NCBI GenBank assembly: GCA_002118135.1
Contig: BDIU01000185.1
Span: forward strand, 1-64,000
Length of the DNA: 64,000 bases
DNA from: Trebouxia sp. TZW2008
Lineage: Eukaryota > Chlorophyta > Trebouxiophyceae > Trebouxiales > Trebouxiaceae
Reading direction: 5' to 3'
The stretch's first letter is position 1. Every line of letters begins with the position of its first letter. The translations under genes and the position numbers were made by a program. This document shows positions 591 through 61,200 of the stretch, in pieces. The notes beneath the pieces were generated by a model. It saw only the letters and a list, made by a program, of their open reading frames with translations. It was not told where the DNA came from and made no database searches.

Positions 591-3500
591 ATGTTTGCCA
601 AACTCTCTGCATTGGTCAGCAGTGCGCCGAGTTTCCCATACGCTCTCGGGGAGCAATACCGCACAGCATGGGGAGGATGGAAGCATTTTCAGGGCACCAG
701 CAACAGCGATGGCTCAGCTGTGTCCATTTTCCGCACGTCCTCCACAAACAAGCAAGATCCTAAGCTCACATCAGCAAGAAACGGCGTGAAAAGACTTCGA
801 ACAGTGAGCGTATACAAAGGCAGGGCTGATTGGACTGGAAAGAACGCACTCCATCGAGTTTGTGAATGTGCCTGCAGTTGCGTCATCCAAACGTGCTGTC
901 TTTCAAAGACACTGCTGAGCTTGATGAGCGAGGAGAAACCATTATATACCTCGTCACTGAGCCTGTCACACCATTGCTGGAGGTTCTGCAGTCCCTGGAC
1001 GTGACTGGACCTGCCAGGTGCGCTCTTGGCTCAACAGTGCACAGCAGCGCTAAAGCACACGCTAGCTATTCTGCCTGGTCACACAAGATTGAGGAGAAAC
1101 ATTCTGTAGCAATGGCTGCAGGCAGGAGTACGTAGCAATGGGACTGTATCACATCGCCAAGGCAGTCAGCTTCATCAACAGTGATTGCAAGCTGGTGAGT
1201 ACTGCGACCCCAAGGCATACATGAGCATAGATGAGATGAAAACATTCTGAGTCTGCCTCATTTCATGCCTTGATGTGAGACCATACAAGCCCCTGCCAAG
1301 GTCTGCCTAATGGCATTGGTATCAATGTGGTTTGATGCCTGTACTTTGATGTCACAAGATCCACGCCGATGCCTGCATGAAGGCAGTTATGATGCTTAGG
1401 CCTCACATCCCTGCCTGCATGAACTGAATCTGATGACATACAATGCTGACACAAGTGCAAGTTTGGTCCAATCCTCTTGTATGACATGCAGATCCATGCC
1501 AACATCTGCATGAGGGCAGTGGTGGTCACAGAAACCCTGGATTGGCGCCTGCATGGGCTGGATCTGATGACCGAGCACATGGCGACAGGCGACCTGCCTC
1601 TCATGAGTGCCTCTTGGATGGTGGGTGCTCAGTACAAGCCCTCAGAGATTGCCAAATGCGAGTGGAGCTCAATTCAATCAGGCCCGCCTTGGGCTGTTGA
1701 TTCCTGGGGCCTGGGCTGTCTGATGCAGGTGTGCATCCAGTCTAGCACTTGTCCCATGCAGCAGCAAATGTTCCTTCATTCGTGTAGACCCTGTGCATTA
1801 CACCTTTTAAGCAATGATACAAGGATTGTGTTCGTCAGCATGCCTGATGCCTGTTGCACACGCCTTTGTAGGATTTGAACATTGCCATGGATGCCACATT
1901 GTGTGGCAACCAACTGATTACAGTGAGAGCAGACATCTGCTGAAACGTCGGTTATGTATGACACAATCCTTGACCGTGGTAAGGCGTGACCGTGCTCTCA
2001 GATCTTGGTCTTGGCCTGCTGTAGTGGTGCTGACATTGAAGCCGTGTCCTGACATAGGGGATAGACAGCTAATCAGATGAATTGCTCAGCTGATACGCTT
2101 TCCATCACCTAGGTCAGTGCAAGCCTCAATGTCGCTTGCTGCTAGCATCAAAAGATGAGTCAGCATGCCTGGCTGACGACTTGTGCCAATGCTTGCACTG
2201 CTTGCAAACGCCCTGCATGTGCTGTATCATGTTCTCGTTCTCCTCACCAATTCTCATGTCCACTGTTGATGCTCATGAACACGCGTTCTTACATGTCTGT
2301 AGGCCACCAGTGAGCGCACACATCTTCATGGTGCAGTCAGTTTTGTACAATCTCGTCAAGGTGTCAGGTGCGTGCGTGTGGCACAAGACACAGGTCTTGA
2401 TCATGGCAAGGCGCGTGCATGTCCTCTCATCTTGGTCTCTGGTATGGCTGCCGACATTGAGGCCTTGCTTTGACACAGAGGGTAGAAAGTGCATCAGATG
2501 CGTTTCTCAGCTGCTGCACTCTTTGCCATCTTGTGTCAGAGCAGACTTCAGTGTCACCTGCTGACAGCATTCAGAGATGAGTCAGCATGCCTTGCTGGAG
2601 CCCAGTTATGATGCACAAATTGCTTTTGAAGTCTTTTCAGAAGACAGTCTTTTCACAAGACAACAGGCCAGCCTTAACCTTTCCCTTTTGACAAAGGCCT
2701 CTGGACATGACAAACAAGCTGTGCGCTGCTGGCAGGAAGCATTCAATGGAGCAGAGATGGCATCTATGGAGGAGCTCAGAAACACAGCGCCCATCCCTAA
2801 GCCCGTCCTTCAGGTCAGATCTGAAGCTTGTCTGTTCATGTCTGATGGCTTATTTTGCTTTGGCGATTCCCAATTGTTACGTGCGAAACATCAGCGACAT
2901 AAGCGAGCTGCTGTCTGCTTTGGTCAGTGTCTGCCGCAGCAATGTTGCAAGTTGTGCAAAGATCTATTTCTCAAGCTCTGTTCTTGACAGTCTGCTGGCA
3001 AAGCAGAGGTGAAGCGCACATTTGCATCCCATAAATCTTCTCTGGCAGTGCTGATCTCGTGCAATACACATCTGGCACTGATCTTGACTGCCTGGTGCTT
3101 TTGTTGTCGCTGTTTTGCGATGTCATTGCCATGATCATCGTCGTCTGTCAAATCGTTCAAGTGCTACATGTAACACATTTTGCTTGCCTTGCAGGACTAC
3201 CAGCGTCTGTTGAGCTCGCAGCCTGCCCGGCGGCTCAACCCAGCAAAGCTAGCAGAAAGCAGCGTCCTCAAGAACAAGCTGGTGGACACAATCGCCTTCT
3301 TGGAGAACTTGGCAGTCAAAGACAGCGCAGAGAAGGATCTGTACTTCAAAAGGCTGCCTGGGGCTATCCCCAGCCTGCCCCTGCCAGTGCTTAGACGCAA
3401 GCTGCTGCCGATGTTGGCCCAGGCCCTCACTTTTGGAGGGGCGCCTGCAGTAGCCCTTGGCTCCATTCTACAGGTCACATACAGCAAGCTTGCCTCTGTA

Positions 3501-6500
3501 CTGCTCACTGCTTACTGTGCACGCTGAGAGGTACAAGTCTGGAGCTGTCCTTGCTAATGCCTAAGCACAAGCTGATGCCAATGTTGGCCCAGGCTCTCAC
3601 CTTTGGAGGGGCAGTAGCCCTTGGGTCCATTCTACAGGTCACATACAGCAAGCTTGGCCCTGTATTGCACGCTGCATTCTGCATACTTTCCATGCAAAGG
3701 AGGTAATTTTGAGCCTGCCCTTGCTGGTACTTAAGCGTAAGCTGCTGCCCATGTTGGCCCAGGCCCTTACTTTTGGAGCTGGTCATCTTCTCTCCTGCAT
3801 TGAGCATTACAGCTATGGGCTGGCTTGTACTACAGTACATACTGTGTCTTGAATCATGAAGGGGCTATTCCCAGCCTGCCCTTGCCAGTGCTCAGACGAA
3901 AGCTGCTGCCCATGTTGGCCTACGCTCTCACCTTGGGAGGGGCTCTTGCAGTAGCGCTTGAATCCATTTTGCAGGTCAATAAACTGCATTTATACTTGCT
4001 GGCTGGCTCATTCACAGGTTCGGTGATTCTGGCATCAGGTCAAACTTGGTGTCTGTGCAGATTGGCAGCTCCATGGAGGAAGCTGAGTTCACCCAGAGAG
4101 TGGTGCCCTGCGTTTCAAAGCTGTTCACATCAACAGATCGCAGCATCCGCCGCAGCCTGCTGGAAAACATTGATGCTTTTGGCAAACACCTTACTCAGGT
4201 ATGCCATCATGAGCATCATGCCTGATGGTGAGGTGCCTTGACCTTGTCAGGTGCATACAAAAGCAGTGAACTGCCTGAAAAGAATTCAGTCCAAAGCCTG
4301 TTTTGGTAGCATTGCAGTTTCACTCCTAAGTCCCAAAGCTCTTTGACCATGCACATTGGTCAAAGCATACAGAGAGCCATGACTATATGCTTGACCTACA
4401 GTGGCTCACCATCAGATCCCGGGCGTGACTTGACTGCGCTGCAGCTGTGAGTGCTTGAGATTAAACCGAGCCTAGCCCTTGGTGCTGTGACATAGCCAAC
4501 TTGCAAACCTCAAAATGCATGTCTAGCTTTGGCCACAAGGGTGAACGTGTTTGCAGTGCAGTGCAATCAAATCTGTCAGGGCACCAAACTTGAGCGTGGG
4601 CATCTGTTGACCAGGGATCATAGTATGGATCTCCGTCTGATGCATGGTATCTGTCTGTTTGCAATGTAGAGGTACTGATCAGCTTGCATTCACCAATGTC
4701 AATGTCACCACATGCTTTCAAGATGGCACAGCGTATCACTGCTGTGCTGCAGGCAGTTGTAGAGCAGATCTACCCAAATGTCACCACAGGCTTCACAGAC
4801 AGCAATGCCTACCTCAGGGAGCTCCCCCTCAAGTCCATGCTGACGCTGACAACCAAAACATCAAGGACACCAACAGTATCTCACCATTGCTGTGCTGCAG
4901 GCAGTTGTTGAGGAGCAAATTTATCCTGACGTCACCGTATCCCAACGTCACCACAGGCTTCACAGATAGCAATGCCTACCTCAGGGAGCTCATCTTCAAG
5001 TCCTGCCTTCAACTTCTCATGCAGTTTACTGTCGCCAGTGCTGTGTTGCAGGCAGTTGTTAAGAAGCAGATTTATCCCAACGTCACCACCGGCTTCACAG
5101 ACAGCAATGCCTACCTCAGGAAAATGCTGCCTTGATGTTTTCACACAGGCCACTGTTGTGGTGCAGGCAGTTGTAGAGGAGCAGAACTACCCCAACCACA
5201 GGCTTCACAGATAGCAATGCCTACCTCAGAGAGCTCATCTTCAAGTCCTGCCTTCAACTTCTCATGCAGTTTACTGTCGCCAGCGATGTGTCTCAGGCAG
5301 TCGTTGAGGAGCAGATCTACCCCAATGTCACACAGGCTTTGCAGACAGCAATGCCTACCTCAGGAAAATGCTGCCTCAATGTTTTCACACAGGCCACTCT
5401 TGTGGTGCAGGCAGTTGCAGAGGAGCAGATCTACCCCAATGTCACCACAGGCTTCACAGACAGCAATGCCTACCTCAGGAAAATGCTGCCTCAATGTTTT
5501 CACACAGGCCACGCTTATGGTGCAGGCAATTGTAGAGGAGCAGATCTACCCCAACGTTACCACAGGCTTCACAGACAGCAATGCCTACCTCAGGGAGCTC
5601 ACTCTGAAGTCCATGCTGACGCTGGCGCCCAAGCTATCTCAGCGCACCCTCTCCAACTCCCTGCTCAAGTTTCTGGCCAAGCTACAGGTACAGCCTGTCT
5701 ATCGATTGAGTTCATTTGCCATATGTGCCCGCGCAAACGCGAGGTAGGTCACAGGTATGCCTCACCCTGTTCCTGTAGGCCATACAGTAGGCTAACGTTG
5801 TCACCTGAAGGTGTGCAGACGATGGGGTCAGCCCTTCGACTGCATATCAATCTTACACGATATCAATCTGACACGAAACCGTACCTACTTAACCCAAACC
5901 CTAGCCTACCTACAATCTTAGCAATCAGAGGTTCCAACTCCTCTGGGGCGCTTTGCCAAAGCTCTGAGGCTGCTGCATATGCAGCACATGGCATGCATCA
6001 TTTTGAGCCACTTGTCATGGTTGACTGCTCTTGGCTGTACTCCCTGCGCAAATTCCTAGCCAAGCTACAGGCATGGCCTTTGCATAGTCTCAAGAATTTC
6101 AAACTCTTACTGGTTTGAGATTGTGAAAAAGAGAGAAAAAAACCTCTGAGACTATTGCATGTCTTGGACAGGTTGCCTGAAAGCACCTGCTAACTCTAAT
6201 TGCTTTTCGCTCACCTGCCTGCTCAACTTCTTGGCCCAGCTGAAGGCATGCTCCATCAGTTGACGACGAGTTGGGTTGAGTTGTGTTCAGACAGCTGTGC
6301 TGTGCATAAGTTGCTGACTCATGCATGAACCACATGCGCTGGCCAGCTTGATTGGTCAGTTTGCCAAGTCCCTGCAGCTGTTGCATGTGTTGGAAAGCTT
6401 GCTTGTTTCAGCTTGACATGTCTGAATGCTCTTTACTGTACTCCCTGCTCAATTTCTGAGCAAGTTACAGGCATGCTCTGCAGCCTCAGCAACTCAAACT

Positions 6501-9500
6501 ACAAACGCTCATGTTGGAAAGTGTAATGATCCTAAGTATCTGCCATTTTGCTGCAATCGACACACTCAGAAGCGTGTTTTGCATACCGACGCTAGGACAC
6601 ACTCATGGTTGTCAAGTGGTTGTTAGGTACTGTCATGCCTTGCACAAATAGCAGGCAATAGTTCATTGTGAAACATCAACATCATCACGGTCACTCATAT
6701 TGTTGCAAGATTGATCTGACTGTGTTCGTTGCTCTACTCTGCATACTTGTCGAGGCCCTTCTGCATGTGTTCCTGGCAGGTTGACAAGCAGCCACCGATC
6801 ATTAGCCAACACCACAATAAAGAGCAATAACCACAACATGATTTTGATCAATGCGTCGAGTGACTTGTGCTACATTTGTGACAGGTTGACGAGGAGCCAC
6901 CTAGCCAGAGCCAACACCAGCATGTTGCATGGCCATGGTGATTGCTCTCAATTTTCCTGATCACTTTCATCAATCTTTTCATTGACCTCTGCATGTTCCT
7001 GGCAGGTTGATGAGGAGCCGCCAATCAGAGCCAACACCACCATTTTGCTGGGCAACCTAGCGCCGCACCTCTCTGAGGCCACCTGCAAGCGAGTCATGCT
7101 GAACGCATTCACACGCGCCCTCAAGGACAGCTTCCCTCCAGCCCGCTCTGCAGGCCTCAAGGTGAGGTGTCGCCTTGTTTGTGTCCTGTGCTGTGCAGCA
7201 GGTTTACGCCTGCGCTAGGGAGCTGAGTCAATCTGATCAAAACTGCAGCTGAGATCATGTTGAGTCATGCTGTCCTGACTATGTGCTGTGACTCACCCAT
7301 TCCTTTGGCTGCCCGCTCTGTCAGCCCTGGTTAGTTTTGCTGATTGCCGAACATTGCAAGTCATTCAGCTTCTCTTGAGCCTGCAGAGCAGGCTTTGAGT
7401 TGATGTGGACAGCTTCTCTCCTGCCTGCTTTGCCAGCTGTGATCATGTTATGGTTGAGAGCTGCTTTGAAGCATGCAACATGAGTAGTGATGACCATGCA
7501 AGCAGTCAATGCGAGTATCTGGCTGGCCAAAGTATGTGAAGTTTTGCCCTCAGTTTTCAAAGTTGTCTTCCTTTGAGATTTGTCTGAGGCAACAATCTGG
7601 TACAGGCCACGCTGGCGACAAAATAGTCATATGCAGCTGAGGAGGCAGCTGGCAGGGTGCTGCCCGGTGTTGCCCCTCTGGCAGTTGACGCTAGCCATCT
7701 GACTCCAGCACATGACCTTTTCCTGTTTCCCAGCTTCTCCTTCGCCTTCTCAAGGCTGTGCTTACTGCAACTGATCATGCTTGACAGGCTATGATGGCGA
7801 CATAACAAGCATATGCGGCTGAAGAGACAGCCAGAAATCACTTTGTCCCCGTACCAAACTACTGCAATCACTGTGATCCATGATGTCTCATAGGCCATGC
7901 TGGCGACCAAAGAGTCATATGCATCTGAGGAAGGGTGCTGCCCAGTGTCGTTCTTTTCCCCAGCTTCTTCTTCTCCTTCTCTAGACACTGTGCTGACTGC
8001 AAAGAATGATGCTTGATAGGCTACGCTGGCGACAAAACAGTCATATGCAGCTGAAGAGACAGCCAGAAGCCACCTTGTCCCCTGCCTCTGTGTACCAAAT
8101 CACTGCACTTACTGTGATCCATGATGTCTCATAGGCCATGCTGGCGACTAAAAAGTCATATATGTCTGAGGAAGCAGCTGGCAGGGTGCTGCCCAGTGTT
8201 GCCCCTTTAGCAGTTGACCCTGTGCCAGAAGTGCGCCACGCTGCACTCGCCACCCTGGAAGCCTTCGTCAAGCTGCTGCAAGAGCACTCAGCCATCAGAG
8301 ATAGCACAGCCGCTGCTGCTGATCCTGCCTCACAACAGGTACAGTAGACATCCGTAGTGCTGCATCACTTTCATGCATGGACAAAACCACGCTTGAAGCC
8401 TTTGTCAAGCTGCTGCAAGAGCACTCAGCCATCAGAGATAGCACAGCCGCTGCTGCTGACCCCGCATCACATCAGGTACAGTCTCCTCTGAGCTAGGCGG
8501 AGCTTGTTTGTCAGCATATACTCTGGGCATATGTTGTAGGCTCTGTGGCTCCGTTGACCGTTCACTTGACCCCCAGAGACAGCACAGCAGCTGCTGCTCA
8601 TCCAATCTAGCAACAGCTGTGATTTGTCCCTGTGACTTGCGCTGTGTCTGTCTGTGGTCATTCGTTTTTCAAAGACCAGTGGCTGCCTTGACTGTGCTCC
8701 AAGCCTTTGTCAAGCTGCTGCAAGAGCACTCCGCCACCAGAGACAGCGCAGCCGCTGCTGCTCATAGTGCTATCCTTGAACTTGTGTTGAGATCGTGCGT
8801 GGTCATGTGAGCTAGGCAAAACCTGTAGCTGCACAGACCGCCCTCAAGCCCCTGTCAAGCTGCTGCCAGAGCACTTGAACTGCCAGAGACAGCGCAGCAG
8901 CCACTGATCCAGCCTCACAGCAGGTGCAGCTTCTTCGTCTTTGGGCTGTGTATGCTGATGGCTACTTGATTTGTGAATGCCCTGATCACCCTTCAAGCCT
9001 TTGTCAAGCTGCTGCAAGAGCACTTGAACTGCCAGAGACAGCGCAGTTGCTGCTGATCCTGCCTCACAAGAGGTACATCAGATATCATGTCTTCTGCATC
9101 AATTCCATGAACTGATACACTGATACAGCCTCACAGCAGGTGCAGAAACGTCTGCGCATCAGACTGCAAATGAGAGGTGCTGCCTATGTCAAGCTTAAGT
9201 TGCAACTTGGAGGGGTGTACACACAAGCTCTTACAACTCAGTGGTTTGTGCATCTGGATCGTGCTGTCAATTATACAAATACAGTCAAGAGAAATATCAG
9301 TCAGTATGGTCTTGAAAGCCAGGGTGTACGTGCAGGCAACAGTAGTGTTGCGCATGCATGCTGCCTTTCCCACCTTGTGCATAACACATAATGACTTTGT
9401 GTGATGGCATCAAACCCAAGAACAAGGAAAACAAAGTGTCAGTCTTGTCCCTGCCACTCTTCAACATTCCTGAATGTTGTGGTGTGCATGCAGGGGGCTG

Positions 9501-11316
9501 GGGGCGCGGGGTGGAGTGCGGGTCTGGGCAGCAATTTGGGCTGGGCCCTCTCCAGCTTTGGCGCCTCAAAAGCCAAAGGTCAGCAAAACGCCATGCATGT
9601 AAAGCAAGTGTGCATGAATTGTGAAAATTAGCACACTGCCATGAATGCAGAATCCTTGATGACGCCTGCTTTGCTTCAGTACGTTTGCCCCAGTTCTCCA
9701 TTAGCAGTATACACACAGGCAGTGGCCATAAGCGTACTCATAGTGAATGCCTTTAGGTATGCAGAGGACGCAACAGGGCAGATGACCAGCAGCAGCAATG
9801 GCACAGCCAACATTCTGCTTCTTTTACTTCAGCAGCCTCTGCACAACCCCCCACCAGTCCCATTGCGGAGGGACTGCAATGCCAAGCTCCGACTGTTCAT
9901 CGTCGTTTCCCTATGAGTTTGAACGTCGCTCTCATCATTGTTTTGTGGTTGCAGAGGGTGCGACAGGGCAGATGACTAGCAGCAGCAACGGCACAGCCAA
10001 CATCCCCAGCCCGCCCAGCACTTCTTCTTCAGCAGCCTTCGCCCGGCCCCCCTCCCTCCCCAGTGCAGGGGGTCTGCAACCCCCCAGCCCCCCACACTCC
10101 TCAGCTGCCGCTTCTGATGCATTTGGGAGCAGCAACAGTCTGGCTGCTGCTGCTGATGGCTGGCAGGATGATGACGATGTTGGGGCAACCATACAGGTGC
10201 TGCAATTTCCACCTTCAAATTAGCTTTTCCTCGTGAGTACGGCACTTGTTGGGCTGCTTACTGCAATATCACCCTGTTGTTTGTGACTGTTCCATCCACT
10301 GACATGTTGCTGTGGTCCATACATTTGCAGCACCTGTGATGGGTGACAAAGACGAGCTGGCAGCGTCAAGTCAGCGCTCTATTCGTTCTGGCTTGCTAGT
10401 CTCATCACCAGTGATAATTGGATGGATCTAAACGATCTCATTCTGCTGCAAGCATGTCATCATGACTTCAACTTCTGTCATTGCAGGAAGATGCAGAGGA
10501 GGCAGCAGCTCGCCAGCGCCTAGGCCGACTCAGCACTCGCACCTCAGCTGCTCAGAGCACCCGAGCGCCCCTCAGCACCTCAGGCTCACTCGGCGCTCAG
10601 CGCCAACCGTCAGCTGCTGCCTCAACTTCAGGGCAGCATGTGGCGCCGCCCAAGCTTAGTCAAGATGACAGCTGGGCTGCTGAGCTGGACAACGATGAGT
10701 CATGGGACAGCTTGGATCAGAAGCCCTCTGCAGGTATAGAATTTTGACATGTGTTTTGTGGCATGAGTCTGCCGTCACAATCTTTTGCTTGGTAAAAAAG
10801 CATGTTTTGGCCACTGATTTGAACCATGCTATTTCAAGGAGCACCAGTACCATAACGTGTGATCTGTGAAGGTATGGGCATCTTCCTGATGCAGTACTTT
10901 ACATGACTTACTAGCTCAGTCCTGCTTGCTGGTCAAAGCCAATATGGCATGTTCCATAGCCCTCATCAGCATAGCAAAGCTTTAACAACTATTCCTGCAC
11001 TAGCACAGCGTACAATGATGTGGATTACCCATCTTGTTTGCGCATTCTGCAGCTTTAGATAAGCATTACTGATCATGTAGCACATGTACACATGTGCTAG
11101 AAAGCGTAAAACTCATAAGTTTGTTATGACTGATCACGTCATGCAGGCTCAGCAGCCAGTAGTCGACCAGCAGCAAGAGCGCGGGGCAGAGGGCGGTTAG
11201 GGGCTTCTGCTAGGGGCAGCAGATTGGGGGCTAGTCGAACAGGTTCCACAGGTCGAGGAGGCATGAAGCTGGGTGCTTCAAAAGTGACAAAACCTGAAGA
11301 AGCTTTTGAGTTTTGA
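591..11316 (+). CDS. SCYL1: SCYL1-like (SCY1 family) pseudokinase with HEAT repeats
   Basis: Fourteen exons keep phase throughout: 591-803, 878-1017, 1122-1194, 1492-1728, 2736-2813, 3195-3473, 4061-4198, 5526-5687, 7006-7161, 8135-8338, 9494-9578, 9955-10196, 10487-10733, 11147-11316. The product is about 806 aa, close to human SCYL1. The N-terminal region is a kinase fold without catalytic motifs: the VAIK lysine site reads VSIFR, and LRHPNVLSF and an ATP-site-like segment are followed by IHANICMRAVVV and DWRLHGLDL where HRD and DFG should be. Exons 6-10 encode HEAT repeats (for example IYPNVTTGFTDSNAYLREL). The C-terminus is Ser/Ala-rich, with acidic DDSWAAELDNDESWDS and an RG-rich end. 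SCYL1 proteins act in COPI and Golgi trafficking. Several introns are packed with copies of exon edges, listed separately. Confidence 0.93.
1357..1400 (+). repeat. Decayed copy of SCYL1 exon 4 head
   Basis: The segment around 'atccacgccgatgcctgcatg' resembles the first 40 nt of exon 4 (1492 onward, 'atccatgccaacatctgcatg'). It lies upstream of that exon inside the intron. Confidence 0.7.
3545..3975 (+). repeat. Three copies of SCYL1 exon 6 tail
   Basis: Copies at about 3545-3640, 3708-3785 and 3860-3975 repeat the 3' edge of exon 6 (…LRRKLLPMLAQALTFGGA…SILQ) with its donor. They lie in the intron after the intact exon (3195-3473). The third copy is the least decayed and keeps a long open frame (AIPSLPLPVLRRKLLPMLAY). 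Confidence 0.9.
4748..5485 (+). repeat. Six tandem copies of SCYL1 exon 8 head
   Basis: Copies begin near 4748, 4895, 5046, 5158, 5288 and 5403, and the intact exon begins at 5526. Each carries the acceptor (gtgcag or ctgcag) plus the code for AVVEEQIYPNVTTGFTDSNA and up to about 60 further nt. Spacing is 110-150 bp. Some copies are frameshifted or miss a few bases, for example 'accccaaccacaggc' at 5190. Only the last copy continues into the rest of the exon. Confidence 0.95.
6030..6472 (+). repeat. Three copies of SCYL1 exon 8 tail
   Basis: Sequences at about 6030-6072, 6205-6247 and 6430-6472 match the end of exon 8 ('tccctgctcaagtttctggccaagctacag|g'). They lie downstream of the intact exon, in a long intron. 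Confidence 0.85.
6775..6925 (+). repeat. Two copies of SCYL1 exon 9 head
   Basis: 'ggcaggttgacaagcagcc' near 6777 and 'acaggttgacgaggagcc' near 6883 duplicate the exon 9 acceptor and first codons (7006 onward, VDEEPPIRANTT). Confidence 0.85.
7605..8070 (+). repeat. Four copies of SCYL1 exon 10 head
   Basis: Copies near 7605, 7785, 7885 and 8010 share 'aggccatgctggcgac…' with the start of exon 10 (8135). The first copy extends about 85 nt and keeps EEAAGRVLPGVAPLAVD. All lie upstream of the real exon. Confidence 0.9.
8391..9077 (+). repeat. About five copies of SCYL1 exon 10 tail
   Basis: Copies near 8391-8480, 8574-8605, 8695-8765, 8848-8928 and 8992-9077 repeat the end of exon 10 (FVKLLQEHSAIRDSTAAAAD, then the donor). 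They lie downstream of the intact exon 8135-8338. Confidence 0.9.
9757..9855 (+). repeat. Copy of SCYL1 exon 12 head
   Basis: 'acagggcagatgaccagcag' and about 80 following nt duplicate the start of exon 12 (9955: EGATGQMTSSSNGTANI). The copy is upstream of the intact exon. Confidence 0.9.
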
Positions 11317-11893
11317 TGCACTCCCTGCTTTTGATCATGTACCATACTTTGTTGCTGTGATGATCTCTTGGGCAAGCACAACAGTATCAAGCTCTTGACA
11401 GCAACGACTACGACATCAGGCCACATTTGTCACGCCAGACCTGTGACACAACACAGCCTGTGTTCATGGCATCGTGCAATGTTGCCGCTTCAGATCTGAT
11501 GCAAAAGTCATGCTGCTGCGCTTTTACACAAGGTGTCAATGCATGATCAACCTCGCTTTCTTTTGCAGCAAATCTATAGTAACACAGTAATTGTGCCAGG
11601 CTTGTAAAGCAGGTACAACAAAGCCAGTGTCTAGAGTTGAAGATGCCACAGTAGTTAACAAGCAACACTTGAGAATTGTATGGCTACGGTAAGGCCTTTG
11701 AAACAGGGACGATTCGTCAACTTTCAACGCTTTCAGCCCTACATAGCTTCTGCAACATATGCAACCAACACAACTTGACAATCAACAAAAAAAAGCAACA
11801 CTCCACTTGCGCTACCTGTCCTAAGCAATGTGCTGCATAGTCATCAACATGTTCCTCCAGGAAAACAAAAACCCTGCTTCGCAATCAATAACC
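11317..11893. other. Convergent intergenic region
   Basis: 577 bp between the SCYL1 stop and the SGNH hydrolase stop on the opposite strand. It must contain both 3' UTRs. No coding exon or structured RNA was recognised. Confidence 0.4.
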
Positions 11894-12972
11894 CTAATTT
11901 GCCTGAGGCCCGTTCACATATCTATCAATTGAGGGCTTCAGACAACTGGCCAAACGAGCCATGCCAGCTGCATTGGGATGAAGACCATCTGGGAACACAG
12001 ATGCCGATAACTGCAAGGCAAACACACAAAAACATTCAGGAAGTCATCCCACACTCAAAACGCCAAGTTTTGCTTTATACTTGGCACTTATGGTCGGCAG
12101 CTTGCAGCATAGCTTCAGGCAGCCTCAGCTTGATGCCGATGCAGCAGCCTCAGCAGCAACAACTGTGATCACTATACCATGTACGAGATTGTGCAGCATA
12201 TGCATCAGCTTATTTGTGAATGGTGTCACAGATACTCTCATGCCCAAGTGACCTCTGAGTCTCGAACACAAACATGGTAAGCAGTTAGGCTGGCTAAGTG
12301 GCAGGTCGACCCTGCGCTTTCATACTCACGTGTTGCAAATGGATGCAGCAGTAAGCACTGAGAAAAAGGAAGGAACAGTCTGCGCCGTTAGGAATCATAG
12401 CGGGAGCCTCTGTGAAGAGGCAGCCCAGGAACAAGCACTGATCATACAACGTGAAGGCAGGGATTGCGCGCTGTATTCACTACGTATGCTTGCCAAGTGT
12501 CCGCAACTGTATCGTGCGTAACAGCATGTTAATCATTTGGAGACACAGACGCAAAGCAAGCTAGTGCCCTTGCACAACAGACAAGCTCTGCAATCTGCAA
12601 TACAAGACACAAGCACCATTGACCTGATAGCATGTTGCAAGTGCAGCACCCCTCACCTGGCCGTCTGTGAGCATGTCTTCTGCACAATCGATGTAATGTA
12701 CCAAGCTGTGTTCTGAGGCAAATGTCTCTAGGGCTTGATTGACATGTCCAATGGCGGGATCAAACAGATTTGGCCACTCGAACACTCCCTGGTCATCTGG
12801 AGAAGTCTCCACAGCGACAGGCAGGATGCCAACCAATAGGACCACTGTATCTGGATTCTGCTGCTGAAGATGTGACACAATGTGTACAAGTCTGCAGACA
12901 GACACAAAATTGCTTAGTTGGTCAAGTGAAAACAAACAGACGATGAATAGACAAGCAAGCTTTAAGTCAGAT

Positions 12973-13018
<46 letters not shown>

Positions 13019-14179: not shown

Positions 14180-14216
14180 TGCTTCTGTATGCACCTAGTA
14201 GGGTCAGAGAACCTCA

Positions 14217-17200
14217 TTAGCAAGCACATACATGGCAATGATGCTTCACCTGTGCATGGTCAAACTCAGCTACTTCAGCAGCTAACTGAGCAGCTTCATT
14301 CTGCAAGTGTAGACTCTTCCGAGGAGTTGGCTCTGTTGCGAGCTCAGGGCACAACTCAGAAACCCTGTCAGCCTCAGGTTCTGTCACATGGGTTCTGCCA
14401 GGGTGCACCAGTTGCACTGTTTCATCTGCCTGGGGTTCTGTCAGGGTTGGGTTCTGCCCAAGTTCTGCCATGTGGGTTCTGCCAGCTTCAATAGGGTTTA
14501 TGTCCTCTTCAGGCTCTGTCACATGGGCTCCTGCTGGAAAGACTTGATTTTCAAATTCTGTCATGTGCAGCTCAGCAGGCTCAGTGGGATCCTGAGTTGA
14601 GGCATGTGACGCCCCAGCATGCTCAGCAGCGTCTGTCACATGGTCCCTGGTGGCATGCTGGGAGTTTGAACCGCTGACATGGTCCGCTCTAGTGAGATGA
14701 TCCGGCTCGGCTCCGTCGATAATTTCTGCTGTGTTACCCATTTCATCAGGATTTTTGAACTCGCCACGCTGCTTGCGCTGTGCCGCATGCTCCATGGCAT
14801 CTTCAAATTGAAGCCTGCCAAATCCAGATTCCACCAATCTCCCGCCAATTCGAGCAGTTTCCTCCTGGTCAGCATCCGGGTTCTCATGCTGCAAGGGTTT
14901 CACAAACCCTGCCTCCTTCAAGCTATCACTAACCCTCTGTTCTCTGTGCTGACCAGACCCTTGTTGTGCCGCTTCTAGGGCTTCCAAATCATACTCTTCA
15001 TCTTGAGGAGCCTCAAAACCCTCTCCTCCCAGGGGCCTGAACTTCTGCAAAACATTGCATGCCAAAAGCCAAGTCAGCGGAAGGTGTACGTCGCGTTGTT
15101 GGGTGAAAAGATTTGGAGTTGCTGGGCGGAGGCGTTAAGCCTGTCAACAATCAGGCAAGAGAGGTTTTGCACAATGCTTCACAATCGCTTCACATGGACT
15201 TGTACTATCAAATTACAGGCAACAAGTCCAGTCAGCAATAGACTTCAATTTGAATTTTGAGCAATTGATGATGACTTCATGATGTCAACAGCCGGGACAA
15301 AGCTTGCTATGCGATTCTGTCATCAGAAATTGCATTGTTAGCTGAAAAGACACTGCAATCTCAGAAGCACAGCTGATGTTGTAGCTGATGCAGCAACCAC
15401 AGACAGCTGACTGCTCAAAGTGTCAGCTGCAATATTGATGCAGCTGACCTGAAATGTGTGAAAATGTGTCAGTTATTGCAACTCTTGACAAACAGCTTGC
15501 TTTGTGGTTGATGCAGCCACCATGCAGCTGACCTCAACATGTGCTGAAAGTGTCAAATGCTGCAACCTGACAGCTGATACCTGGTGGAAAAGCTGACTTT
15601 GTTTGACGCAACTGACCTCAACAGTGTGTTGATAGCGTTGTATGCCAACCTCATGCAGCTGAACTCAACATGTAGGTTGCATGTGTCAAATGCTGCCTCT
15701 TGCGCGTGCAAAGGCAATGCAGCTGACCTTGACACATGTGTTGATAGTGTCGTTCCTGCAACTTTGCACATTCATGCAACTGACCTCAACATGTGTGTGG
15801 AAAGCACTAGGTGCTGCAAAACCAGAGAGCATCCTGATGCGATAACCAAGCAGCTGACTCCCACGATTGTATGTTGAAGCTGACGCTTGATGCAAGTATA
15901 GATGGTGAGCTGATGCAATGGCCATGCAGCTGACCTCAACATGTGTCTTGAATGCATCAGACGCTGCCTCTTGTGTTGCTCAGGGACACCGTATGTTGCA
16001 GCAGAGGCCATACTCATGCAGCTTGATGTGTGTACTGTCTGTGTTGGATGCCACATGCACGCAGCTGACCTCTACATGTGCACTGAGAGTACTGAATGAT
16101 GCAGTTGCAGACAACAGCTGATGCAATGCAAGCAGCTGACCTCAACATGTGTGTTGAAAGCATCAGATGCTGCCTCTTGTGGATGTTGTCTGACTGTCTT
16201 GGCACAGGGCCAAGCTCTCTTATCCCGCCAGTTCACTCCTTGGTATGGGGGGTTGAAGCAGTCTAGGTTGTAGCCAGCATTCAGCATTGCTGCACTGGCC
16301 GCTATTTCACCTGCAAGACCACAACATCATTACAACAATAGAGCAGGAACACAGAGGATGTGACTGGTTGTTCTGTGGGGTTGACGCAGTCTAGGTTGTA
16401 GCCAGCATCTAACATTGCTGCCCTGGCTGCTAATTTGCTGAGGAAGCATGAAATATGTGGCAGCAGATCACATGCTGCAAGCATTTGAAGCCAGAAAGAA
16501 TAGCTTGTCATGAATGAATGGCTAGTGGCTTGACATGCTGCAGCGTATAACAATAAGAATAAAAGTAGTAATGAATGGTTGCACTTTCTAGCACATGTGC
16601 TGCAGCGTATTGCCTTGTACAGCAACATGAGTGCCATCCTGCTGATGTAGCTGCAAAACTTAATGGCTTGTAGTGACCAGAACATCAAAATTCTACTGTG
16701 GTTGTGTCAAAGGATAGCTTGCCTTTCATCTTGGCTTCGTGCCACGTGGCGTAGCAATCAAAACACCTGGCATTCTGCAAAACCTCCAGACCAACTGTAT
16801 CTGTTGCCATTAGAGTTGCCTCAACATGAGGGATAAAGTCCTGCAGGTCATCAAAATTGTTTGCTTGATGTCTTAGAGTCACTGAAGCCATGCAGAGGGT
16901 CTTTATGGGAACAACTTTAGACATGAGCAAAAGCATACAGCATGGGTCGCTGCAGGCTCAAACACGAGACACCACCATAGCTATGTACAGGTGGCCTCAA
17001 GCATAGTAGCATGAGCACGACTGCAGGTAGCACGATACCTCTCTGACAGGCTGACAGACAATGTTTGCGCCGACCAGCTTGGTAGTTGTGGTGATCCTGG
17101 ATGTCAACAGAGTATGCCAAGCAGGGGCGCGGTCGCCCTGTACTGTATGGCTGGGCAGCAGCGGTCCTTTGGCAGAGCTGTCTAGCCATACAAAGTATTT

Positions 17201-46000: not shown

Positions 46001-49000
46001 TGCGCCACAGCTGCTGGTCTTTGCCTTTCAGTGCCAAATTGCATCATGCAACATGGGTGGCACATTGATGCATGTTCTACCCCCTCTTGCAACATGAGGC
46101 ATCACTGTTGAAGAAAGTGTGGAGCGCATGTACATGCCCCCTGTGCATCATTTTTGGATGCTTGTTTGTGAGCAATGTGCATGCGCATGCAGGATCCAAA
46201 ACTCGCCAGGGATGCACAGCAGCTCTTTGCCAGCCCATACATGCGAGTCAACACCACCACAGACGTGACTGGCGTCGAGATCTGTGGAGCACTCAAGAAT
46301 GTGTTGGCAATTGCGGCCGGCATAGTGGAAGGGCTTGATCTAGGGCACAATGCAATGGCTGCCCTAGTGGCACAGGTGGGTTCATGCCCTGCATTTTGCA
46401 AGCAACAGACAGATGACAATCTGCAGCATTGTGTACATGGCTGTCCTTCGGTGCAAGTGCTCAATGCTACTCCCCTTGTGCATGTCTGGGCCACTGTGTA
46501 ATCGGCTATCAAGCTTCAAAGCGAAGCGTCGTTAGTCACTCATCCATTTTGAAGTTGACATTCTGCATGCAATGTGGCAGAGCGGATTGATTTGCAAGCT
46601 GTCGCCACCCTGCTGCTTGTCACACTAGCTGTGCTCGATATTCGTGCTTTCTGTCATGCCAGCTGTGCGTGCTCAGGGGTGTACTGAGATCAAATAGAAA
46701 GCAGCATACCTAGGTGCACTTGTCATGCCAGCTGTGCGTGCTCAGGGGGTGTACTGAGATCAAATACAAAGCAGCATACCTAGGTGCACTTGTCATGCCA
46801 GCTGTGCGTGATCAGGGGTGTATTGAGATCAAATACAAAGCAGCATACTTAGGTGCACTTGTCATGCCAGCTGTGCGTGCTCAGGAGGTGTACTGAGATC
46901 AAATAGAAAGCAGGATACCTAGGTGTACTTGTCATGCCAGCTGTGCGTGCTCAGGGGTGTTTTGAGACCAGATAAAAAGCAGGACATTCAAGGGCACTTG
47001 TAAGATGTGACAGAAACACTTCCCACTTTTGTCATCACGACAGCCTGGCGTGATCACGGCTGTGCTGAGATCAAATGGCAAGCACGATAATCAATGGCAT
47101 TTGCGGGCTGCCAGAATCATTCTCCTCATGCCACTTGTGATTTACAGGGCTGCGCTGAGATCAGATGGCTGGCAGAGAAGATGGGCGCCAAGTCAGCCAC
47201 TGTATCTGGACTGTCAGGCCTTGGGGATATCATGCTCACCTGCTATGGCAGCCTCTCACGCAACAGGTGAGGCAGTTAGGCCCCTGCACATATTGTCAGG
47301 CTTTGACATCATACTCACCTGCTATGGCAGCCTCTCACGCAACAGGTGGGGCAGTCAGCCTTTTGCATATCGCGTCGGCCTTGGAGATCATGCTCACCTG
47401 CTATGGCAGTCTCTCACGTAACAGGTGAGCCATCTGACTCTCTGCATCAGGCTTTGACAGTATGCTCACTTGCTATGACAGTCTCTCACCCAACAGGTGA
47501 GACACTTTTGCTGGCAGAGAGTCGACTTTGGTACCAGGCGAGCTTAAAATTCTTTGGCCTGCTGCACGGACTTAACCTGCAGAAGGCTGGGGAATTTAAG
47601 CTCACTTGCTGCGGTAGTTGCCTCTCTGCCAGCAAAACTGTCATCAAGCACCAGGCGTGCTCTGAGCACATGATTGCATGTGCAGTTGACAAGATCGTTG
47701 TCAGTTTTGCTTGGGGCAAAACCTTCCAGAAAGTCCTGCACCTGTAGTAGTGCCTGCAGATGCTGGCTTGATCTAGAGCCCATGGGCTGACTTGCAACAG
47801 AAACTACAATGGGTCATCAACAGCAATTGTATATTGCATCTTGCATGCTGTTGCCACTTTTAAAGTATGGCATCAGAAGTCTAATTGCAGAAACAGCACG
47901 GCGTTGATGCATAAGATTTAAGCTGTGTAGGATGAGTTGTATCCACAGTTGAACATTCAACACAACTCGCTGCGGCACAGTTTTGCTGTCAGACCCACAT
48001 ATGATCAAATCTGTATAGACAAGTGGGTGGTTTCAGGACGGTGGGAGTGCGACTGGGTGCTGGGGAGAGCTTGCACGACATCCTGTCAAGCAGCCGCCAA
48101 GTGGCAGAAGGCGTCAGCACTGCAGGTCAGTACAGCTATCACGTAACCTTGTCATGCAATTGTTTCTGCTTAGCTTTTACAATGACATCCTGTCCAGCAG
48201 CCGCCAAGTGGCAGAAGGTGTCAGTGCTGCAGATATGTACAGCTACCACGTAATTATGTCATGCAATTGTGATTGTCCAGCACTTCAAATGACGTCCTGC
48301 CCAGTAGCCGCTCAGTAGCAGAAGGCGTCAGCACTGCAGGTCAGCAAGCTCATCAAGCAATTATCTTCTAGTAGCATTCCTGATCACATTTTGTCTAGTA
48401 GGCATTACGTGGCAGCATTACGTGGCAGCATTACCTCTGTGGGTTTGCAAAACTAGCACGCAATGCTGCAGTCATGCGCTATGCACTTTTCATGCAAAGG
48501 CGCTTAGCTGAGATGTCTGCATGCATGCCAGGCAGTGGCTGGTCCTCACTATGCTGAGTCACACCTTGAACAGTCGCTGCCTGTATGCTGCATCTTGTAT
48601 ATGCGCACTGTGTCATGCACTTTGCACTCACGGAGCGAAACTGTGATGCTGTGCACAAGCTGATGTGAAAGCCATAAGTTGCCATTGAAACTCAAGTCAC
48701 AGCGCAAAACTACTTGAACGCAAAAAGCTTCTATTGATTGCTTTCAAGGGCTGGGCATCATTGCTGTCTCTGTCAGCATAGTGTTGCACATCATTTGTGT
48801 CCAGGTGTCAGGGCTAAGAGAGAGAGAGAGAGAGAGATTTCACATGCTTTAGCCAGCCAACAAGGCTGATCACATGTGCCACACCGTGGCAATGACTATA
48901 TTCCCATGAAATTCAGGCAGTCTATGACATAGTTGAAAAATGTGATGTGCTGGCAATGCAGGTGTTGTTGTCACTCTGGCCCGCAAATATAGAGTCAGTC

Positions 49001-49101
49001 TGCCTGTTCTGACAGCTGTGGCTCAAGTGCTCAACGGCCACCTCAGTGCACAGGAGGCAGTCTACGAAATTATGAACCTTCCTCAAATTGAGGAACGATA
49101 A
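43099..49101 (+). CDS. NAD-dependent glycerol-3-phosphate dehydrogenase (GpsA type), plastid form
   Basis: Seven exons in phase: 43099-43995, 44309-44431, 45461-45649, 46193-46375, 47148-47266, 48037-48125, 48962-49101; about 578 aa. An unusually long N-terminal region (about 245 aa, rich in Ser, Thr, Arg, Gln and His) probably includes a transit peptide. The catalytic part is canonical: [20 protein letters not shown] (nucleotide-binding GxGxxG), [55 protein letters not shown] (catalytic Lys region), and [19 protein letters not shown]. It reduces dihydroxyacetone phosphate to glycerol-3-phosphate for glycerolipid synthesis. An intron contains a mitochondrial-type tRNA-Phe fragment. Confidence 0.95.
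44622..44734. repeat. 13-bp inverted repeat spaced by 87 bp
   Basis: 'tttgggctctaca' (44622-44634) and 'tgtagagcccaaa' (44722-44734) are exact reverse complements inside a G3PDH intron. Could be a decayed TIR element; no target duplication was seen. Confidence 0.6.
45312..45460 (+). repeat. Copy of G3PDH exon 3 head
   Basis: 'aggacatactgccacaagatttgccaatcat' and 'aaatgatgtcagagctgtttgt' duplicate the first about 100 nt of exon 45461-45649 ([10 protein letters not shown]…KMMSELIV), directly upstream. Confidence 0.92.
45837..45890 (+). pseudogene. Truncated mitochondrial-type tRNA-Phe(GAA) fragment
   Basis: 'tagctcagatggttagaac' (D arm), then 'aaggactgaaaatcctt' (anticodon stem AAGGA/TCCTT with loop CTGAAAA, anticodon GAA) and 'gtgttggcgg' (variable loop and 5' half of the T stem). 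It stops before the T loop, so it cannot form a complete tRNA. It closely resembles plant and algal mitochondrial trnF. The about 80 bp before it are AT-rich, unlike the surroundings, suggesting a small organelle-DNA insertion (45760-45890) in the G3PDH intron. Confidence 0.8.
46653..47110 (+). repeat. 70-bp tandem array derived from G3PDH exon 5 head
   Basis: Five units start at about 46653, 46723, 46793, 46862 and 46932 with 69-70 bp period, plus a more diverged one near 47040. Each contains 'tcatgccagctgtgcgtgctcagggg' followed by 'gtactgagatcaaat', resembling the exon 5 start 'ggctgcgctgagatcagatgg' at 47148. Confidence 0.93.
47280..47505 (+). repeat. Three copies of G3PDH exon 5 tail
   Basis: Copies near 47307-47350, 47387-47430 and 47458-47502 repeat 'atgctcacctgctatggcag' through the donor 'caacaggtga' ([12 protein letters not shown]). 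They lie downstream of the intact exon 47148-47266, period about 78 bp. Confidence 0.95.
48168..48345 (+). repeat. Two copies of G3PDH exon 6 tail
   Basis: 'gacatcctgtccagcagccg' near 48183 and 'gacgtcctgcccagtagccg' near 48291, each with 'ctgcag' and donor-like sequence, repeat the end of exon 48037-48125 ([16 protein letters not shown]). Confidence 0.95.
48820..48838 (+). repeat. GA dinucleotide microsatellite
   Basis: Nine to ten uninterrupted GA units in the last G3PDH intron. Confidence 0.9.
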
Positions 49102-58591: not shown

Positions 58592-59017
58592 TGTGATCTG
58601 TCTCTGCTACGAAGCTGAGACCAAGTGAAGCCAAGACTGCAAGGTGCTGCAGGATGTGGCAGTGTGCTGACGCACAGCTTGCTCTGCCAGTGACTGAGTA
58701 CAGCACAAGCTCAACACAGTCGCAGATCGCTCCGATGACTGTGCCAAGCGGGTCGGACCGTGACCTGAAAGCTGGTCGATTGTGCAAAGTCAACGCGCGC
58801 AACTGGGGGGATCTACCACGCAAGGCACGTGACTGCTTGGGCTGACAACTCTTCAACGCCAGCGCCTTTTGCTGCCAGAGTCTTATTGACTTCTTACCGC
58901 GCTGTTGAGCTAGCAAGAGTGCAAGCTCGCTCGCAACAGGAGGAGGCGCCAAAGATCAGCAGATTGTGTGGGGGAGCAAACTTCTTATACCATCCTGTGC
59001 TTTTCTTGTGTAACAGA
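58592..59017. promoter_or_regulatory. Bidirectional promoter region of ATG18 and the CHZ-like gene
   Basis: 426 bp separate two divergent start codons. The presumed start of the CHZ-like 5' UTR is near the right side. No TATA box was identified with confidence. Confidence 0.5.
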
Positions 59018-61200
59018 ATGAGCCCGCAAGGCGGCGAGTCTGACTCGAAAAGTAAAGGTAGCAAGACAGGTACAATAAGACGCATTTGGTCGTAGTTCTG
59101 CAGTTTTTTCGTACGAGGTCAGAAGCCTGATCTCCGAAACTGATCAGACATGTCAATAGCAGTTGCGCCTGCTAAAGCAGCTCGGCGGCTCGATGCTGCA
59201 TGCATATACCAATAAAGCCGCCTTGGAGCGTGACTTCCCTGGCAGCCTGCTTTTGTTGCAATGTGGCTGGTGCAGCGACAAACCTAGGCTCATTTGCCGT
59301 GCTCAGCAGAATTTGAGCAAACAGCTTTGCTGATGGCGTAAGGCTGTTTGACTACAGATACAAAAGGCAAGGGCAAGGCAACCGAGCAAGATGTGAAGGA
59401 TTCAAAGGGCAAGGGCAAGCTTGTTGAACCTTTGGACGATGACGAAGAGGACGAGGAGGATTTTGATGCGGAGGTGAAATCATTTGAACTTTTGACAGAG
59501 CTTTCATGTGCCTCATCACATGCGTGCGAGCTATGGTCAGGCCTCTATATTGGTACATGTCACAGATGACTTGAGGACTACATTGGCCTCGAATATATGA
59601 GCTGGATGATTGCTCATGAAACGTCTCTTTGTTGGCTACAATTGGCAACACCCTTGTGTCGCCTGTGTCGTCATCCTTCGTCACCTGTTGAAGCATATGC
59701 ATGCATCTTTGCCTTGAGATTGCAGGCATGGTTTCTGCCAGGGTTGTGGTAGCAAACTGATACAGACGCCAGGATTGTCTTCTTTATCATCATGCAATGC
59801 AATCTGCTGGCTTGCCCACAGGCTGGCTCAGGTAGCGAGGACGATGATGAGTTAGATGAGGAGGACGAAGATGAGGATGACGACGAAGAGGAAGAGGAGG
59901 ACGAGGATCAGCCACCCTCAAAGAAATCCAAGGCATGCTCCGTTCAAGCGTCAGAGACATTGCAGCAATGTCAAGCATGCTTGGAGATGTGTTGCAACCT
60001 TTTCACGCATAGTCGATGATGTGCAAGCTTGGGTATTCAAAACATTGTTTGACACGTTGCGCCTCTGCTCAACACTGAAGGTGTTGCTTGCGGCATGCCT
60101 AATTGTTCTGTGGCATCTGTGATGGGCAATTAGGAAGACGGCAATTGTGGCCAAAGGTCCAATAGAGGAGGTGTGCATGCAGGTTGGACAGGGCAGCTCA
60201 CCAAAGCCCAGCATCTGCAGTAAATGTTGTGACAGGTGGCAGACTTCATCCTGATGAAGCTAGTTGCACTTGTGATTTACAAAATGACAGGCAGCAATTG
60301 ATGACAAAACAGTTGATAAGCAAAGATTGCATGCAGGTTGAACAGGGCAGCTGATCAGAGCCCAGCATCTGAAGTACATTGCAACATTGCAACTTAATAC
60401 CTGATCAAGCTTGAGGTGTTGCTATAATTCCAATAGGTGGAGACCAAGACAGGCAATTGTTGGCCACAGAGCTGATAAGTGAGGATTGCATGCAGGTTGA
60501 ACAGGGCAGCTCATCAAAGCCCAGCAGCTCTTCCAAAGCTGGTGCAAGCAGCTCATCAAAGCCAAAGCCAAGCAAGAAGAGGAGGAAGGGAGATGGTGAT
60601 GAAGAAGATGAGGTCAGTTATTTGAACACAAAGTGTTGCAGTGCTCCAATTTTTTGTCATTGTAGAGCTGGAGAGGCAGTCATGTTCAGCATGATCACCA
60701 AATCATTTCTACGTGCTGCTCCTACGACAGCGTTTCTGAGCATGTTTTTGGGCCCACAGGTCTGGCGCGCGATGCCAAAGAGTTGACTTTCAGCGCTTCT
60801 CATGTTCTGCTGCTACAAAAAGCATGTACAGCCAAAACCTGCAGCTTGTGCTGCTTCTGCTGCTGCAGCTATACAAGCTTTGTCACAAACGCTGAAGCAA
60901 TCAAGAAATCACAGCAACGCCTGTTGCTGGCACACTCACGTCGCGTGTCAAGAGCTTGTGCTTGTTGCTTGAACAATCTCAGCCTTGAGATATAGGGCTT
61001 TCCGAGACATTGCACTCTTGTGTTGTGTGCAGGAGGACGCTGAACCAGAGACAATAAATCATGCCTCAGGCGATGAAGTCGACCCATCCCTGATCATCCC
61101 GGGTGGTCGACGAGCACGCAAAGGGCGACCACAAATTGGTGGCGGAAATCAGTATAAGTATCAGCAGAAGATGGCTGACTCAGATGAAGACAGCTGGTGA
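59018..61200 (+). CDS. Acidic nuclear protein with a CHZ-type (H2A.Z-H2B chaperone) motif
   Basis: Exons 59018-59057, 59358-59473, 59822-59932, 60496-60612 and 61033-61200 join in phase to about 183 aa. The N-terminal half is Lys/Gly (TKGKGKATEQD) then very acidic (LDDDEEDEEDFDAE; EDDDELDEEDEDEDDDEEEE). A Ser/Lys segment with a nuclear-localisation-like KPSKKRRKG follows. The C-terminal part has VDPSLIIPGGRRARKGRPQI, which resembles the short CHZ motif of Chz1/HIRIP3 histone chaperones (IDPSNII..GRRTRGK). The combination of acidic tract and CHZ-like motif supports histone H2A.Z-H2B binding. Exon 3 uses a GC donor (AAG|gcatgc). Confidence 0.75.
60175..60375 (+). repeat. Two copies of CHZ-like exon 4 head
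   Basis: 'catgcaggttggacagggcagctcaccaaagcccagc' near 60176 and 'catgcaggttgaacagggcagctgatcagagcccagc' near 60331 duplicate the acceptor and start of exon 60496 (VEQGSSSKPS), upstream of it. Confidence 0.95.

What the first reader, a model, noticed from the sequence alone, without database searches (positions are those of the whole stretch)
1357..60375. Pervasive 'exon-edge' tandem duplications hidden in introns
In nearly every multi-exon gene here, introns contain tandem copies of an adjacent exon's edge together with its splice site. I read at least 20 such boundaries in SCYL1, both SGNH genes, the secreted GT-like gene, GT61-like, ARC3-like, GDT1, G3PDH, LSD1-like, ATG18 and CHZ-like genes. 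The topology is strict in every case: head copies (with acceptor) lie upstream of the intact exon, tail copies (with donor) downstream. This follows if short tandem duplications spanning a splice junction occur often and are tolerated because the outermost intact site is used, so the protein is unchanged. Purely exonic duplications would be removed by selection. The scale, copy number (up to 6) and range of ages in one 64-kb window look unusual and may reflect a lineage-specific mutation process that lengthens introns and seeds cryptic exons.
Basis: partly seen in the sequence, partly recalled or inferred. Interest (0 to 1): 0.93.

Follow-up and report, generated by a model that had tools for sequence, protein, structure and literature searches.

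The report
Exon-edge copies filling algal introns
In this green alga (a Trebouxia), short DNA stretches at the borders of exons have been copied repeatedly into the neighbouring introns, and although many copies still look like working splice sites, the two finished messages we could examine ignore them, which makes the genome a natural test of how cells choose where exons begin and end.

Summary
The window is Trebouxia nuclear DNA. Proteins inferred to come from spliced transcripts fix the exons of two genes (SCYL1 853 of 853 aa; ARC3/FtsZ-like 637 of 638); a homologue fixes a third, G3PDH. Of 30 introns, 16 hold a copy of a flanking exon above the 99.9th percentile of 930 control pairs. Acceptor-edge copies lie upstream at 11 of 30 edges and downstream at 0; donor-edge copies lie downstream at 8 of 30 and upstream at 0. 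Many copies keep strong splice signals, yet neither transcript protein uses one. It is widespread but patchy: local direct copies cover 15% of the window and 0.4-13% of seven sampled regions. Best explanation: local tandem duplication (units mostly 100-200 nt), tolerated because splicing pairs the sites nearest each other across the exon. The strict topology is mostly geometry. Two things exceed that model: exon-edge units outnumber intron-only ones (18 against 2-4; about 41% expected), and some exon halves are far better preserved than their intron halves, suggesting gene conversion from the live exon. Each ingredient is known; the density is the new part.

The parts
453..11313 (+). SCYL1 gene (N-terminal kinase-like), 14 exons: 453-803, 878-1017, 1122-1194, 1492-1728, 2736-2813, 3195-3473, 4061-4198, 5526-5687, 7006-7161, 8135-8338, 9494-9578, 9955-10196, 10487-10733, 11147-11313 (protein start probably 591, as in relatives; 453-590 would be 5' frame)
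   Evidence: spliced alignment of P0001 (853 of 853 aa)
1359..1431 (+). head copy of exon 1492-1728, upstream, decayed and weak
   Evidence: score 24.5; 19.5 against a control maximum of 21
3545..3974 (+). three tail copies of exon 3195-3473 (3545-3637, 3712-3802, 3861-3974), downstream
4753..5465 (+). six head copies of exon 5526-5687 (acceptor copies at 4753, 4901, 5052, 5167, 5297, 5411), upstream
5952..6479 (+). tail copies of exon 5526-5687 (6039-6070, and weaker 6212-6245 and 6440-6470) inside a locally duplicated stretch of intron
6780..6935 (+). two head copies of exon 7006-7161
7606..8063 (+). four head copies of exon 8135-8338
8387..9072 (+). five tail copies of exon 8135-8338
9765..9890 (+). 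head copy of exon 9955-10196
29391..37442 (+). ARC3/FtsZ-like gene, 12 exons: 29391-29532, 30076-30230, 30991-31149, 31469-31627, 32108-32246, 32821-32960, 33733-33877, 34594-34766, 35416-35563, 35845-36008, 36630-36818, 37242-37442
   Evidence: spliced alignment of P0121 (637 of 638 aa)
30304..30370 (+). tail copy of exon 30076-30230
   Evidence: not above control in the edge test
30448..30930 (+). three head copies of exon 30991-31149 in a 181-nt array (copied junctions at 30453, 30634, 30811)
32351..32395 (+). tail copy of exon 32108-32246
33565..33672 (+). head copy of exon 33733-33877
34352..34533 (+). two head copies of exon 34594-34766
34827..35188 (+). two tail copies of exon 34594-34766 (34827-34922 and 35137-35188)
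35688..35769 (+). head copy of exon 35845-36008
43672..49098 (+). glycerol-3-phosphate dehydrogenase gene; exons used here 43672-43995, 44309-44431, 45461-45649, 46193-46375, 47148-47266, 48037-48125, 48962-49098 (start of the first is uncertain)
   Evidence: spliced alignment of homologue P0166
45317..45400 (+). head copy of exon 45461-45649
47344..47424 (+). tail copy of exon 47148-47266
48186..48339 (+). two tail copies of exon 48037-48125
1960..2598 (+). intron-only local duplication (unit about 215 nt, offset about 425) in SCYL1
46644..47002 (+). intron-only 70-nt tandem array in the G3PDH gene
   Evidence: gene-finder exon only
16141..16310 (-). predicted exon of the gene model that carries an SGNH/GDSL domain, with a copy at each edge in the stated direction
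   Evidence: gene-finder exon only
26264..26378 (+). predicted exon of the gene model with a GT61 domain, with a tail copy downstream
   Evidence: gene-finder exon only

Best explanation
Short direct local duplications (units mostly 100-200 nt) arise often in this genome. A unit that spans an acceptor leaves an extra exon head plus acceptor upstream; one that spans a donor leaves an extra tail plus donor downstream. [quoted passage not shown] The spare edges then decay mostly like neutral sequence, and can multiply by unequal exchange with the real exon. Shown: the copies, their direction, and the exon choice in two proteins inferred to come from spliced transcripts. Inferred: the break-repair origin, exon definition as the reason, and exchange between exon and copy.
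For: Direct, not inverted: at >=32 bits, 77 direct against 0 inverted hits at offsets 20-1999 in the window and 95 against 5 in the 180 kb sample. 372 local against 1 far-control diagonal hits. 99 of 181 primary offsets fall in 100-199 nt. 19 of 60 supported edges have a copy in the tandem-expected direction, 0 in the other. P0001 and P0121 use the intact exon at all 15 of those edges that lie in SCYL1 and ARC3; 33 of the 38 copies at score >=25 lie in these two genes. Decay: over 38 copies, mismatches fall 135/112/223 at codon positions 1/2/3, close to what a free copy and a constrained parent would give; 29 of 38 carry a stop or a frame-breaking gap in the alignment. Introns are long (median 580 nt) and exons short (mean 171 nt), the setting in which nearest pairing across the exon is reported (PMC9225289, abstract). 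Break-repair routes to small tandem duplications are described (PMC8355091, passages).
Against: Uniform tandem duplication predicts 39-41% exon-edge units among detectable ones (simulation); observed 18 edges against 2 intron-only clusters, 3 with one at score 24.5, or 4 if 5952-6479 is also counted as intron-only (p 8e-6, 3e-5, 1e-4). A tandem unit should carry equally old intron flank, but at 13-48 nt from the junction only 11 of 36 adjacent pairs show significant homology, and at 8338/8475, 34766/34922 and 30453/30634 the exon part is over 90% identical with no flank homology. Survivorship could produce the observed exon choice without exon definition. Copy 8387-8475 has all 7 mismatches at third positions, unlike a free copy. 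Predicted intergenic DNA holds fewer copies (3.7% covered) than introns (10.7%), below all 500 circular shifts (mean 11.1%), which a uniform process does not predict, though the annotation is from my gene finder.
Confidence: 0.72

Rival explanations
1. Concerted evolution: an ordinary old tandem duplication whose exon half is repeatedly overwritten by gene conversion from the functional exon, so exon-edge copies stay recognisable long after their intron flanks, and intron-only duplications, have faded. It can be true together with the best explanation.
For: Exon halves outlast intron halves. Mismatches within copies are clustered (p 0.0025; p 0.0003 for 38 untrimmed copies, 0 of 3000 for 31 copies trimmed by 8 nt, 0.024 for 25 copies trimmed by 15 nt). 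It would explain the excess of exon-edge units. Codon-position pattern is compatible.
Against: Clustering could reflect alignment ends or uneven mutation. Shared lineage-special residues fit recent origin as well as conversion. No outgroup DNA was available to polarise changes.
Confidence: 0.35
2. Exon-targeted, non-tandem copying: a process that copies exon edges with only a few intron bases and places them some tens of nt away.
For: Some copies end about 5-13 nt past the junction with an unrelated-looking spacer (sequence; scores). Excess of exon-edge units.
Against: Among the 25 pairs without significant flank homology, 19 have positive flank z-scores, so many flanks are probably faded homologues; several copies show clear tandem intron homology.
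Confidence: 0.12
3. Functional alternative exon edges (alternative or mutually exclusive exons kept by selection).
For: Splice signals kept: AG at 20 of 22 acceptor copies, GT at 10 of 15 donor copies. A few copies have third-position-rich mismatches, such as 0/0/7 and 4/3/12.
Against: Copies are partial; 29 of 38 carry stops or frame-breaking gaps; the pooled codon pattern looks mostly free of amino-acid constraint; no copy is in P0001 or P0121, nor do the four ARC3-like orthologues aligned carry a duplicated segment.
Confidence: 0.06
4. Assembly artefact (mis-resolved or duplicated haplotype sequence).
For: The three ARC3 head copies are 97-98% identical to one another in their exon part, so recent or false expansion of that one array is not excluded.
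Against: Most repeat pairs differ by 6-40%; the proteins P0001 and P0121 match the intact exons; local direct duplications appear in all seven other sampled regions, though with only 1-2 clusters in two of them.
Confidence: 0.01

Closest known systems
[quoted passage not shown] passages, including part of the abstract)
   Same: A local tandem duplication that carries an existing intron-exon structure, so the copy inherits a branch site, pyrimidine tract and 3' splice site.
   Different: There the copy made a new working intron in one gene; here the copies are left unused in many introns.
Internal gene duplication (Gao and Lynch 2009, PNAS; not held, known here only through citations in PMC4974935 and from recall)
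   Same: Frequent duplication inside genes, including segments with introns.
   Different: I could not check whether it reports unused exon-edge copies filling introns.
AGGT tandem-duplication model (Rogers 1989 and Hellsten 2011 as cited in PMC4974935; Drosophila cases in PMC2891723, passages)
   Same: Tandem duplication and splice-site reuse that leaves the protein unchanged.
   Different: That model duplicates purely exonic sequence and makes a new intron; here the unit spans an existing junction and lengthens an existing intron.
Exon definition by splice-site proximity (Carranza et al. 2022, PMC9225289; abstract and section list)
   Same: With long introns, the sites closest across the exon are chosen, which is what is seen here.
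   Different: There from a database of alternative splice sites, with section headings naming plasmid and RT-PCR tests; here the competitors are natural, near-identical duplicates.
Small tandem duplications from break repair (Nat Commun 2021, PMC8355091, passages; the rice and Arabidopsis papers seen only in its reference list)
   Same: A described route to small direct tandem duplications in eukaryotes.
   Different: No link to splice junctions in what I read, and no evidence here on breakpoints because nearly all units are old.

Membership tests
Local tandem duplication | Copies are direct and close, not inverted or dispersed | tested here: met
Local tandem duplication | Whole unit (exon part and intron part) is repeated | tested here: inconclusive
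   flank homology at 13-48 nt significant in 11 of 36 adjacent pairs; weak positive trend in the rest, 19 of 25
Local tandem duplication | Breakpoint microhomology or fill-in signature | not tested
   only 8 of 153 listed local pairs reach 90% identity, and several of those are patches
AGGT intron-gain duplication | Unit is purely exonic and creates a new intron | tested here: not met
   48 of 49 copies span an existing junction; whether these introns are old was not tested
Introner or other transposed element | Related copies at unlinked loci | tested here: not met
   one SCYL1 unit searched in the whole genome gave 3 matches, all at its own locus; 1 far direct hit in the window; other units were not searched genome-wide
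Tandem (mutually exclusive) alternative exons | Full exon copies with both splice sites and open frame | tested here: not met
   copies are exon parts, 29 of 38 with stop or frame-breaking gap
Exon definition | Sites nearest across the exon are used among competitors | tested here: met
   33 copies at score >=25 in SCYL1 and ARC3, none used in P0001 or P0121; survivorship not excluded
Exon definition | Moving or removing a site shifts choice as predicted | not testable with these tools
   needs minigenes

The most novel reading that the evidence does not exclude
A working exon keeps its own dead copies alive: gene conversion from the selected exon continually refreshes nearby exon-edge copies while intron-only duplications fade, so introns accumulate a lasting halo of near-perfect decoy splice sites and the spliceosome must rely on exon definition to ignore them.
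Probability: 0.25. Interest if true: 0.75.

Novelty: new variant of a known kind. Interest (0 to 1): 0.52.

Why it matters
Many natural introns here carry several near-identical competing splice sites with the outcome readable from RNA, so the genome could give a large-scale test of exon against intron definition in a green alga. It suggests a route to intron lengthening that standard repeat masking may miss (inference), and it misleads gene prediction: my own gene finder called copies as exons.

Tried and rejected
First gene-finder versions over-split genes or never ended them and were replaced. The whole-sample junction enrichment (16.9% of 645 predicted junctions against 8.9% after circular shifts) is circular, because copies attract exon calls; I do not rely on it. 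Seven of 46 rows run against the stated direction; they come from long gapped alignments that chain head and tail copies, and the edge-centred test has none. A nucleosome-length reading of the 100-200 nt mode was considered, not tested; detection is weak for short units. The null for the intron-only scan was flawed (a random stretch could overlap its own query), so the threshold of 25 does not rest on it; hits at 22-24.5 (7518-7804, 31668-32002, 34907-35201, 45255-45461) were not counted, except 31668 in the '3' and '4' variants. Cluster 5952-6479 (scores up to 34.5) was put with the exon-edge class because it surrounds tail copies; counting it as intron-only gives the '4' variant. No report of such copies in Trebouxia was found: literature searches, and word searches of three Trebouxia genome papers (PMC12712428, PMC11523091, PMC11126685; passages only), where 'tandem' does not occur. 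Subscription papers were not searchable.
Full report
What the window is. The window is bases 1-64000 of contig C177 of a 68.5 Mb, 527-contig genome. My SCYL1 query is 93% identical to a protein of Trebouxia sp. C0009, and six published Trebouxia genomes are 63-74 Mb at 50-51% GC (PMC11523091 table), so it is a Trebouxia. P0001 comes from a contig of 3355 nt with an unbroken 853-aa frame; mapping it to the window needs 13 introns, so I read it as a spliced transcript. P0121 (638 aa, longest contig 4715 nt) is read the same way. That both are RNA-derived is inference.

Exon maps. Spliced alignment gave 14 SCYL1 exons (853 of 853 aa), 12 ARC3/FtsZ-like exons (637 of 638) and, through a homologue, the G3PDH exons. 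I kept 33 exons, 30 introns and 60 internal edges; three short G3PDH exons proposed at its start were dropped as doubtful.

Is it more than chance? Intron-exon alignment scores for flanking exons exceed the 99.9th percentile of 930 non-flanking pairs in 16 of 30 introns (8 with the upstream exon, 10 with the downstream exon; 15 of 30 exceed the control maximum). Junction-centred 60-nt windows exceed the 99.9th percentile of 1800 distant comparisons at 11 of 30 acceptors upstream and 8 of 30 donors downstream, and never in the other direction (19 of 19, p 4e-6). Three of these 19 do not exceed the control maximum. Copies at score >=25 make up 2902 of 18703 intron bases, 15.5%.

Genome-wide reach. 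Of the first 14 stretches sampled (140 kb), 12 contained at least one local direct duplication. Over window plus 180 kb sample, coverage by local direct copies ranged from 0.4% (C1) to 14.9% (window), so the window is the richest of the eight regions. Tiled 60-nt windows matched a far 1-kb control stretch in 20 of 16206 tests and an inverted local copy in 69 of 8103. With gene-finder exons, 55 copies lay in the stated direction and 19 in the other over 424 sampled edges. In the region of the three supported genes the same gene finder gave 30 against 14, while supported exons gave 19 against 0, so copies miscalled as exons can explain such disagreement; I did not prove this for the sample.

What the copies look like. 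Offsets peak at 100-199 nt (99 of 181 primary hits). Splice signals are often kept: AG at 20 of 22 acceptor copies and GT at 10 of 15 donor copies; 15 of 22 and 10 of 15 score within 1 unit of, or above, the site actually used. The weight matrix was trained on gene-finder calls that may include copies, and the true acceptor 8135 is itself weak (0.6). Mismatches between copy and exon fall 135/112/223 at codon positions 1/2/3 over 38 copies, near 1:1:1.8, about what I expect if copies drift freely and the parent changes mostly at silent sites. Single copies depart from this (0/0/7 at 8387-8475).

Where the simple model falls short. Simulated uniform tandem duplication on these genes, with neutral copies, constrained exons and ages uniform up to 0.6 substitutions per site, gives 39-41% exon-edge units among detectable ones. 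I count 18 edges against 2, 3 or 4 intron-only clusters, depending on two doubtful cases (p 8e-6 to 1e-4). Counting edges on one side and clusters on the other is a crude match. Second, intron flanks fade too fast relative to exon parts: at 13-48 nt from the junction 11 of 36 adjacent pairs are significant, and 19 of the other 25 have a positive z. Both are accounted for if the live exon refreshes its copies by gene conversion; clustered mismatches agree but are indirect. If only pairs with visible flanks are counted as young, the excess shrinks; that is a rough argument, not a computed test. Third, predicted intergenic DNA has fewer copies than introns, which I leave unexplained.

Dating. The intact exon 30991-31149 closely matches the orthologues, while the copies have diverged from it; yet the copies share residues special to this lineage, such as GNIN where the four aligned relatives have GNVN. 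So these copies arose, or were last converted, after the split from the Trebouxia strains aligned.

How it works, most likely. Break-associated repair makes short tandem duplications; those spanning a splice junction leave a spare edge in the intron; splicing joins the sites nearest across the exon and ignores the spare; the intron grows. The direction of the spare edges follows from tandem geometry. What needs explaining is that strong competing sites are ignored, for example six upstream copies of acceptor 5526, four of which score above it. Reported exon-definition behaviour in long-intron genes (PMC9225289, abstract) fits, but only tolerated duplications would survive to be seen, so the finding alone does not prove it.

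Verdict. Real and widespread; every ingredient is known; density, decoy quality and the persistence of exon halves are the unusual parts.

Noticed in passing
window 4753-5525: Higher-order repeat: the spacers between the six SCYL1 head copies alternate between two types, so a two-copy block was itself duplicated (spacing about 244 nt).
   Followed up: partly
window 30448-31111: The 181-nt array starts about 5 nt before the first copied junction, with no detectable intron flank there, although later copies share a 97-100% identical 60-nt intron part.
   Followed up: partly
window 8387-8475: Tail copy with 7 mismatches in 89 nt, all at third codon positions, although I see no obvious acceptor of its own.
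   Followed up: no
window 12364-12432 and 25149-25219: The only direct repeat over 3 kb apart in the first window self-search (83% over 71 nt).
   Followed up: no
window 24040-24115: AGCAT pentamer array, about 15 copies, with a related imperfect array near 22260.
   Followed up: no
window 12974-13086: CAG/CAA repeat tract.
   Followed up: no
sample regions C1 (L004, L005) and C150 (L010, L011): These stretches carry few local duplications (0.4% and 3.1% coverage) compared with 7-13% in the other five sampled regions; cause unknown.
   Followed up: no
predicted genes: An ab initio gene finder trained on this genome calls intronic copies as exons (for example 4753-4832 and 4901-5125), so automatic Trebouxia annotations may contain spurious exons.
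   Followed up: partly
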